From Sipunculus nudus (Eukaryota; Annelida; Sipuncula; Golfingiida; Sipunculidae), in NCBI GenBank assembly GCA_026874595.1, contig CM049310.1, forward strand, positions 6,696,001 to 6,760,000: DNA of 64,000 bases, read 5' to 3'. Below, piece after piece: positions 22,401 to 25,400 of the stretch. The notes beneath the pieces are model-generated. The model ran no database searches. It was not told the DNA's origin and saw only the letters and a list, made by a program, of their open reading frames with translations. Every line of letters begins with the position of its first letter. The stretch's first letter is position 1. A program made the position numbers and the translations under genes.

Positions 22401-25400
22401 TTTTTTATCATATATAACAGCTGAGCGCCATGACCCATAGGTCCCTTGTTATTGTGAAATTATATTTAAAAAGCAGCTGAACGAATGTTGTAAAAACTGT
22501 GTATACTCAGCCAGAAATTGATAAAAAAAAAATGTCATTATACATGTGACAGGTGTCACAGGTCTACCAATAGATGGCGCTGATAAGGGGATTTCCAGGA
22601 CTTAAGCTGGTCTATGCTAAAACCGCGTTATTGCAACAGACTTAAATCGCGGGCTTGCCTAAGTGGCGTTTCGCGGCCTATCTCCCGTTAGGGGCTTAAG
22701 TCATTTACATTCTTATTGCAACAGGGCCCAGAACTTTGAATGAGTCAAAAACCAAAGTGACATGGCTGGATACAAGTTTCTTGTTGTTAAGGTTAGCATG
22801 ACAGGCAGCTGGTACGGTGTAAATGTAAGTGCTGTAGCATGTAAACAAGAAAATACTAATTTTAACATTTTCTTCCAGTGTTGAACTTAACCTTGATTGA
22901 TCTGCCCGGTATGACCAAAGTGGCCGTGGGTGACCAGCCTGCAGACATTGAGGTACAGATCAGGAGCATGTTGATGGAGTTCATCACAAAAGAAAACTGT
23001 CTCATCCTGGCAGTCACACCGGCAAACGCTGATCTTGCCAACTCTGATGCCCTCAAAATAGCCAAGGAGGTGGATCCACAAGGTACGAACTTCAGTTAAA
23101 ATGTACATAATGCAGGTTGTTTATACCCTTTTCATATATGTCTGTCTCCACAACATATTGTACACTTTGGATAAAGTACATTTGAGGTGTTCTCATGGAC
23201 CAAAGGTTCATTGGATTTTATCGTTGACACTTGACACTCTGCCCATCTTTATCTGATTCACCAAATTTTATATATAGGGAACTCACATGAAGTGAATAGG
23301 ACTGGTGCGTGCATCTTGCATAGTAGTGCTGCTTTTGGTCTTGTGCCAAAATATTTTGAAGCATTCACACAGCATATATACAAAAAGGTTTTACTCAGTT
23401 ATGAATTGAAAAATTGCTGTGTGCTAGCATTCTTGACAAAGTTCTGTTATTAAAAATAACAGTAAACCATCTGGTGTTATTGGTTGTCATTTCTTTCTTT
23501 AAGATTGTAGCAGCAAATTGTAGGAAGTTGTAGCAGATCTTGGCATATAAAATCATGCGAGGCCCACTGGTCACTATATTATTATGGTTCTCCTGCAGGC
23601 CTGTGTACTATAGGTGTGATCACAAAGCTCAGGTCACTATGTTATTATGGTTCTCCTGCAGGCCTGCGTACTATAGGTATGATCCCAAAGCTCAGGTCAC
23701 TATGTTATTATGGTTCTCCTGCAGGCCTGCGTACTATAGGTGTGATCCCAAAGCTCGTTCACTACCTTATTATGGTTCTCCTGCAGGCCTGCGTACTATA
23801 GGTGTGATCCCAAAGCTCGTTCACTACCTTATTATGGTTCTCCTGCAGGCCTGCATACTATAGGTGTGATCCAAAGGTCAGGTCACTATGTTATTATGGT
23901 TCTCCTGCAGGCTTCATACTATAGGTGTGATCCCAAAGCTCAGGTCACTATGTTATTTTGGTTCTCCTGCAGGCCTGCGTACTATAGGTGTGATCCCAAA
24001 GCTCAGGTCACTATGTTATTTTGGTTCTCCTGCAGGCCTGCGTACTGTAGGTGTGATCCAAAAGCTCAGGTCTCTATGTTATTATGGTTCTCCTGCAGGC
24101 CTGCGTACTATAGGTGTGATCACAAAGCACTGGTCACTATGTTATTATGGTTCTCCTGCAGGCCTGTGTACTATAGGTGTGATCCCAAAGCTCAGGTCAC
24201 TATGTTATTATTGTTTCTCCTGCAGGCCTGCGTACTATAGGTGTGATCCCAAAGCTCAGGTCACTATGTTATTATGGTTCTCCTGCAGGCCTGCGTACTA
24301 TAGGTGTGATCCCAAAGCTCAGGTCACTATGTTATTTTGGTTCTCCTGCAGGCCTGCGTACTATAGGTGTGATCCCAAAGCTCAGGTCACTATGTTATTA
24401 TGGTTCTCCTGCAGGCCTGCGTACTATAGGTGTGATCACAAAGCACTGGTCACTATGTTATTATGGTTGTCCTGCAGGCCTGCGTACTATAGGTGTGATC
24501 ACAAAGCTCGGGTCACTATGTTATTATGGTTCTCCTGCAGGCCTGCGTACTATAGGTGTGATCCCAAAGCTCAGGTCACTATGTTATTATGGTTCTACTG
24601 CAGGCCTACGTACTATAGGTGTGATCCTAAAGCTCAGGTCACTACGTTATTATGGTTCTCTTGCAGGCCTGCGTACTATTGGTGTGATCACAAAGCTGGA
24701 TCTCATGGATGAGGGGACAGACGCCAGAGATATTCTAGAAAACAGACTACTTCCACTCAGAAGAGGTGAGGAAAATTACTCTTTTAGTCTTTTTTTTCAT
24801 GCTATCAGAAAAAAACAGTTTCACACATCTTAGTAAATGGCTGGTGATATTTTAATATTATCAATGAGTTATATGATTAATGTAAAAGGACCAATATGAT
24901 AATCAGCTGTGATAGCCATGAATTGGTACAGCATATTGAACGAGTTTTTAGAACTCATATAATACTTATATCCAGTGAATTGTGTATGGTGTTGTGAGGG
25001 AAGTATGACAATATTTAAATTATTATGATTTTATGGATTGTTACAACCCTGTTGAAAATTTACTTGTCTCTGACTGGTATTTTATTTTTCCAGGTTACAT
25101 TGGTGTTGTGAATCGAAGTCAAAAGGACATAGAGGGCCGCAAAGACATTAAAGCTGCTCTTGCCTCCGAGAGAAAGTTCTTCCTCAGTCACCCAGCATAC
25201 AGGTAGACACTCAGACTGTAAAACAGAAGTAAAAGTAAACACCTGGTATCTGTTGTTTCATGGTAATCCATTTTATGCAGTATAAAAAAATGATAATCAT
25301 GCAATCTTTCAGGTCTCTTTTATTGCAGATTTGATTGTTATCAGTTACAAGTGTGTTAGTTTAAAATTGTAGTAATTAATGTTTGGATGTATGTTCCATT

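What the first reader, a model, noticed from the sequence alone, without database searches (positions are those of the whole stretch)
23563..24666. Splice acceptor and first 31 nt of exon 5 amplified into 18 tandem copies, open in frame
The minisatellite unit spans an intron-exon border, so every unit has a full acceptor followed by the true start of the exon. The seven acceptors nearest the real one are exactly 63 bp apart with no stop. Choosing any of them would insert 1-7 blocks of 21 residues just before the TKLD motif of the GTPase domain. Either the splicing machinery always takes the last copy, or the gene makes GTPase variants of changing length. Copy number may also vary between individuals. 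I know of no described dynamin with this.
Basis: partly seen in the sequence, partly recalled or inferred. Interest (0 to 1): 0.88.

Follow-up and report, generated by a model that had tools for sequence, protein, structure and literature searches.

The report
Repeated splice sites in dynamin gene
A dynamin gene carries two stutters in which the end of an intron and the start of the next exon are copied many times over; this is a known but little-studied kind of repeat ("mirage"), it recurs in other genes of the same genome, and it most likely lengthens the intron without changing the protein.

Summary
The array is real: 18 acceptors (23598-24666), units of mostly 63 bp (32 intron + 31 exon bases), and the seven decoys nearest the true acceptor are in frame and open. 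It is not unique. The same gene has a second array, 11 acceptors 79 bp apart at a PH-domain exon (46801-47676), where all 10 decoys meet a stop within 14 codons. Myosin, CCT and kinesin genes of the same 1.43-Gb genome gave six more, three at acceptors and three at donors, in 37 stretches (247 kb) picked by protein family. Such arrays are published in lancelets as "mirages", reported not to disturb splicing. Here arrays hit exon edges about as often as random placement predicts, and never a whole known exon. Only 8 of 47 decoy acceptors in five arrays keep frame and reading open, and array 1's decoys show no coding constraint. Best reading: neutral minisatellites that caught an exon edge; the copy joined to the rest of the exon is used, the others are intron. 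GTPase length variants are untested and unlikely. New: the density, probably outside lancelets, and decoys identical to the true site.

The parts
22880..23082 (+). Exon before array 1 (GTPase domain, ends ...KEVDPQ and the first base of the G codon)
23569..24697 (+). Array 1: 18 units, mostly 63 bp, each an acceptor plus the first 31 nt of the next exon
   Evidence: TRF and unit table
24196..24636 (+). The seven decoy units whose acceptors (24225-24603) are in frame with the true one and stop-free
24667..24765 (+). True exon after array 1 ([32 protein letters not shown]), 99 nt, donor GT at 24766
46801..47676 (+). Array 2: 11 units of 79 bp, acceptor plus first 34 nt of a PH-domain exon; AGs end at 46852 and every 79 bp to 47642; all 10 decoys run into a TGA
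47643..47769 (+). True exon after array 2 ([35 protein letters not shown]...)

Best explanation
Both arrays are 'mirage' minisatellites: a short tandem duplication happened to span an intron-exon edge and then expanded by ordinary minisatellite turnover. Because only the last copy is joined to the rest of the exon and its donor, the spliceosome normally uses that copy and the upstream copies leave with the intron, so the protein is unchanged and the array is nearly neutral. Shown: anatomy, recurrence in other genes at acceptors and donors, a number at exon edges that fits random placement, no coding constraint in array 1's decoys. Inferred: that the exon-proximal site is the one used here, through exon definition, with mis-spliced messages mostly carrying stops.
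For: Same anatomy twice in one gene and in six other genes: acceptors in myosin L008, CCT7-like L026 and kinesin L111, donors in myosin L010, CCT4-like L020 and kinesin L116. Random placement of 47 arrays among 159 exons gives 5.5 +- 2.2 edge-spanning arrays against 7 seen (P 0.31) and 7.2 whole-exon arrays against 0 seen. Array 1's 17 decoys: by codon position 1, 2, 3 there are 10, 9 and 2 differences from consensus in the 31 exon columns, 21 of 527 sites, against 15 of 510 intron sites. Only 8 of 47 decoys in five arrays would be tolerated in frame. Lancelet mirages are reported not to disturb splicing (passages).
Against: No transcript was seen, so use of the last copy is unproven. Local sequence cannot explain the choice: in array 2 the decoy ending at 47326 is identical to the true site over 103 nt. 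The AG is lost in 1 of 47 decoys, fewer than random neighbouring columns would lose (P 0.022), which a purely neutral decoy would not need; copies were partly recognised by their AG, so this is weak. On the first 25 stretches alone the edge count leaned high, 6 seen against 3.4 +- 1.7, P 0.12.
Confidence: 0.82

Rival explanations
1. The array is a source of protein variants: any of seven upstream acceptors is sometimes used and inserts 1-7 blocks of 21 residues before the TKLD motif of the GTPase.
For: Seven decoys are in frame and open with near-identical acceptors; using the nearest two would give exons of 162 and 225 nt, still a normal exon size (lengths follow).
Against: An open unit is expected in 66% of shuffles; the other ten decoys of array 1 break the frame or stop; array 2 in the same gene is closed in 10 of 10; decoys differ mostly at codon positions 1 and 2, and 10 of 17 have P, only 4 of 17 T, at the T of the motif.
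Confidence: 0.07
2. The decoys matter at the RNA level: strings of competent splice sites slow or regulate splicing, with mis-spliced messages destroyed by nonsense-mediated decay.
For: AG kept in 46 of 47 decoys of five acceptor arrays, P 0.022 against random column pairs; decoy donors in L020 are GTAAGA in 15 of 15 while the true donor is GTGAGA.
Against: GT is lost in 1 of 8 decoy donors of L116 and 3 of 13 sites of the related intronic array in L010 read AT; exon edges are not hit clearly more often than by chance.
Confidence: 0.08
3. Assembly artefact: the copies do not exist in the genome.
For: None found here; one lancelet draft was reported to be aberrantly assembled at such an array (passage).
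Against: 1.43-Gb assembly in 153 contigs, array in a 93-Mb contig, units that differ by point changes and by 62/64-bp variants, similar arrays in unrelated genes.
Confidence: 0.03

Closest known systems
'Mirage' minisatellites of lancelets (Adh3, globins BflGb6 and BflGb9, troponin C, PGBD5)
   Same: Tandem units spanning an acceptor or a donor, with splice signals repeated in many of the copies (passages of PMC3087553, and PMC3902484).
   Different: Here up to 18 copies, two arrays in one dynamin gene, and a genome that is probably protostome (phosphagen kinase of arginine-kinase type; muscle myosin nearest chains that I recall as squid and scallop).
IFI6 (6-16) minisatellite with several splice donors in man (recalled; only papers holding that phrase seen in a search listing)
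   Same: A minisatellite that repeats a splice site.
   Different: There repeated donors are used (recalled); here use is unknown.
Intron gain by tandem genomic duplication (search listing only)
   Same: A tandem duplication that doubles splice signals.
   Different: Here an existing intron is lengthened; I saw no new intron.

Membership tests
Mirage minisatellite | Tandem array whose unit spans an intron-exon boundary | tested here: met
Mirage minisatellite | Copies keep AG or GT splice signals (in lancelets many, not all, do) | tested here: met
   18 of 18 in array 1, 11 of 11 in array 2
Mirage minisatellite | Occurs at both acceptors and donors in the genome | tested here: met
   5 acceptor and 3 donor arrays (55, 60, 66)
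Mirage minisatellite | Regular splicing of the message is not disturbed | not testable with these tools
   no transcripts on hand
Mirage minisatellite | Copy number differs between haplotypes or cells | not testable with these tools
   only one copy of each locus found in the assembly
Splice-site minisatellite that makes protein variants | Decoy acceptors keep frame and reading open | tested here: inconclusive
   met by 7 of 17 decoys in array 1, by 0 of 10 in array 2, by 8 of 47 over five arrays
Splice-site minisatellite that makes protein variants | Decoy sites are used in transcripts | not testable with these tools
   no transcripts on hand

The most novel reading that the evidence does not exclude
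Array 1 is used: a share of dynamin messages takes one of the seven open decoys, so that individuals with different copy numbers make GTPases with different sets of 21-residue inserts ahead of the TKLD motif; more broadly, decoy splice sites in this genome are kept competent because they tune splicing.
Probability: 0.08. Interest if true: 0.8.

Novelty: new member of a known kind. Interest (0 to 1): 0.45.

Why it matters
Up to 17 decoys of near-identical or identical sequence stand beside the true site, so these genes are natural tests of how a spliceosome chooses between equal sites: in array 2 local motifs cannot decide. In this small sample 6 arrays fall on the 284 edges of 142 exons outside the window, about 2% (three of these exons were added by eye). 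If that holds genome-wide, gene annotation and length polymorphism in such genomes are affected, and a route to new introns proposed for lancelets could be studied outside them.

Tried and rejected
Naming the organism failed: the mollusc haemocyanin family PF14830 gave no match, but nothing rang in the controls either; the GroEL of small contigs pointed only to distant bacteria.

Arrays judged not to span a known exon: L016 1263-1404, L123 2793-2973, window 50241-50766. Weak or two-copy cases left out of the counts: window acceptor 10403 (70% alike) and L012 donor near 2030 (78% alike). L013 and L014 repeats do not span the edge by eye. The L005 hits I took for alternative myosin exons. Other lesser self-matches near edges (L017, L024, L025, L028, L118 and a second one each in L026 and L116) were not pursued; the two window exons at 53630 and 54440 match each other.

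Idea that splice edges attract repeats: no clear excess over random placement (P 0.31; first 25 stretches, P 0.12). In one search, 127 of 800 random positions lie in a local repeat; I did not rerun the edges under exactly that criterion. Idea that decoy AGs are strongly kept: 0 of 38 lost in four arrays, 1 of 47 with the fifth, so only weak.

Exons in the placement test: 159. Three (two in L020, one in L116) were added by eye after the arrays were seen, and two of the seven counted arrays rest on them; one myosin hit outside the stretches was dropped, and one kinesin hit with 15 stops inside was dropped. L111 is not counted by that script, because TRF stops short of its degenerate last copies. 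Edges come from family matches and are approximate; exons outside the family domains are unknown.

Two listed papers checked by passages and found unrelated: PMC7710358, PMC3039753.

Full report
What is there. TRF finds 18.0 copies of a 63-bp unit at 23569-24697. Each unit holds about 32 bases of intron end with its acceptor, and the first 31 bases of the next exon; 18 of 18 keep GCAG|GC. The true acceptor is the last, 24666. The seven decoys before it (24225-24603) are 63 bp apart, in frame and open; upstream of them, one 64-bp and four 62-bp spacings shift the frame, and none of the ten decoys there is both in frame and open. 17 of 17 decoys read TAG|GT (16 TAG|GTGTGA, one TAG|GTATGA) where the true exon reads TTG|GTGTGA, so the decoys carry a better donor-like motif than the exon does; I have no explanation.

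Gene.

Second array. At 46801-47676 lie 11 units of 79 bp: 45 intron bases and the first 34 of a PH-domain exon. The last 19 intron bases are identical in all 11 copies. All 10 decoys read on into a TGA at the 14th codon. The decoy ending at 47326 is identical to the true site over 103 nt, so nothing local tells the two apart. Each array was found at one locus only.

Other genes. I took exon matches of the myosin head, CCT chaperonin and kinesin families, cut 37 stretches, 247,416 bases (total), and ran TRF and a self-comparison around exon ends. Clear cases: myosin L008 (acceptor, 6 decoys), myosin L010 (donor, 3 decoys; which of two nearby GTs is the true donor is open), CCT4-like L020 (donor, 15 decoys), CCT7-like L026 (acceptor, 5 decoys), kinesin L111 (acceptor, 9 decoys within the stretch, which ends inside the array), kinesin L116 (donor, 8 decoys). 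By their coordinates the 37 stretches come from 33 gene loci, most covered only in part; 6 of these 33 carry one. The names CCT4 and CCT7 and the myosin and kinesin motifs by which I read the exons are recalled, not from a call.

Chance. Over the 37 stretches and the window: 47 arrays (period 20 or more), 159 exons. 7 arrays span one exon edge, 5.5 +- 2.2 expected, P 0.31; 0 span a whole exon, 7.2 expected, P 0.00025. Without the window: 5 of 36 arrays, 4.8 expected; 0 whole exons, 4.6 expected, P 0.001. An earlier run on 25 stretches gave 6 against 3.4 +- 1.7, P 0.12. So nothing clearly draws repeats to splice edges, while arrays over a whole exon are missing, as selection would do. The exon list is partial, its edges approximate, and three exons were added by eye.

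Coding constraint. In array 1's 17 decoys, 21 of 527 sites in the 31 exon columns differ from consensus, by codon position 10, 9 and 2; with the two junction columns after them it is 28 of 561. In the intron columns it is 15 of 510. That is no sign of protein selection; the copies are not independent. Across five acceptor arrays 8 of 47 decoys are in frame and open: 7 of 17, 0 of 10, 0 of 6, 1 of 5, 0 of 9.

Decoy competence. AG columns: 1 loss in 47 decoys, P 0.022 against random adjacent columns. Copies were partly found by their AG, so I call this inconclusive. Donors: GT kept in 15 of 15 in L020, lost in 1 of 8 in L116.

Literature. [quoted passage not shown] PMC3902484 (passages) adds PGBD5 and troponin C. 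The Adh report (Nucleic Acids Res 2002) is not held. My searches for the kind showed no case outside lancelets in their listings; of the papers listed I looked into four, and the library holds open-licence papers only.

Organism. 1.43 Gb in 153 contigs, larger than lancelet genomes as I recall them (about 0.5 Gb). A phosphagen-kinase exon matches taurocyamine and arginine kinases ahead of creatine kinases, and a muscle-myosin exon matches first, by a small margin over vertebrate chains, entries that I recall as squid and scallop. I read this as a protostome, probably a mollusc; not proven.

Verdict. Its value is as a natural experiment on splice-site choice.

Noticed in passing
   Followed up: no
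G000 contigs C61, C62, C66, C72, C73, C75, C89 (two), C99: Nine bacterial GroEL matches of equal score on small contigs; the one read out is at best 69% identical to the 80 kept hits among bacterial genomes, so an unplaced bacterium, symbiont or contaminant, seems to be in the assembly.
   Followed up: partly
window 26444-31492: A 179-bp satellite of 28 copies in a dynamin intron; a very similar unit recurs in L016, L019, L025 and (other strand) L120.
   Followed up: no
window 53672-53803 and 54484-54651: Two related copies of a dynamin exon ([16 protein letters not shown] and [16 protein letters not shown]), possibly mutually exclusive exons.
   Followed up: no
L010 3433-3812: About 13 copies of a 31-bp donor-like unit (AGAAGTGCACAG|GTAAGA) in the intron, resembling the donor-spanning unit some 600 bp upstream: perhaps an older, drifted mirage.
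   Followed up: partly
window 23569-24636: 17 of 17 decoys carry TAG|GT where the true exon has TTG|GT, a better cryptic donor in the decoys only.
   Followed up: partly
L005 (G000:C2:44847000-44856499): A muscle myosin gene with four similar copies of one exon in a row (and a further related copy elsewhere), as expected of mutually exclusive exons.
   Followed up: no
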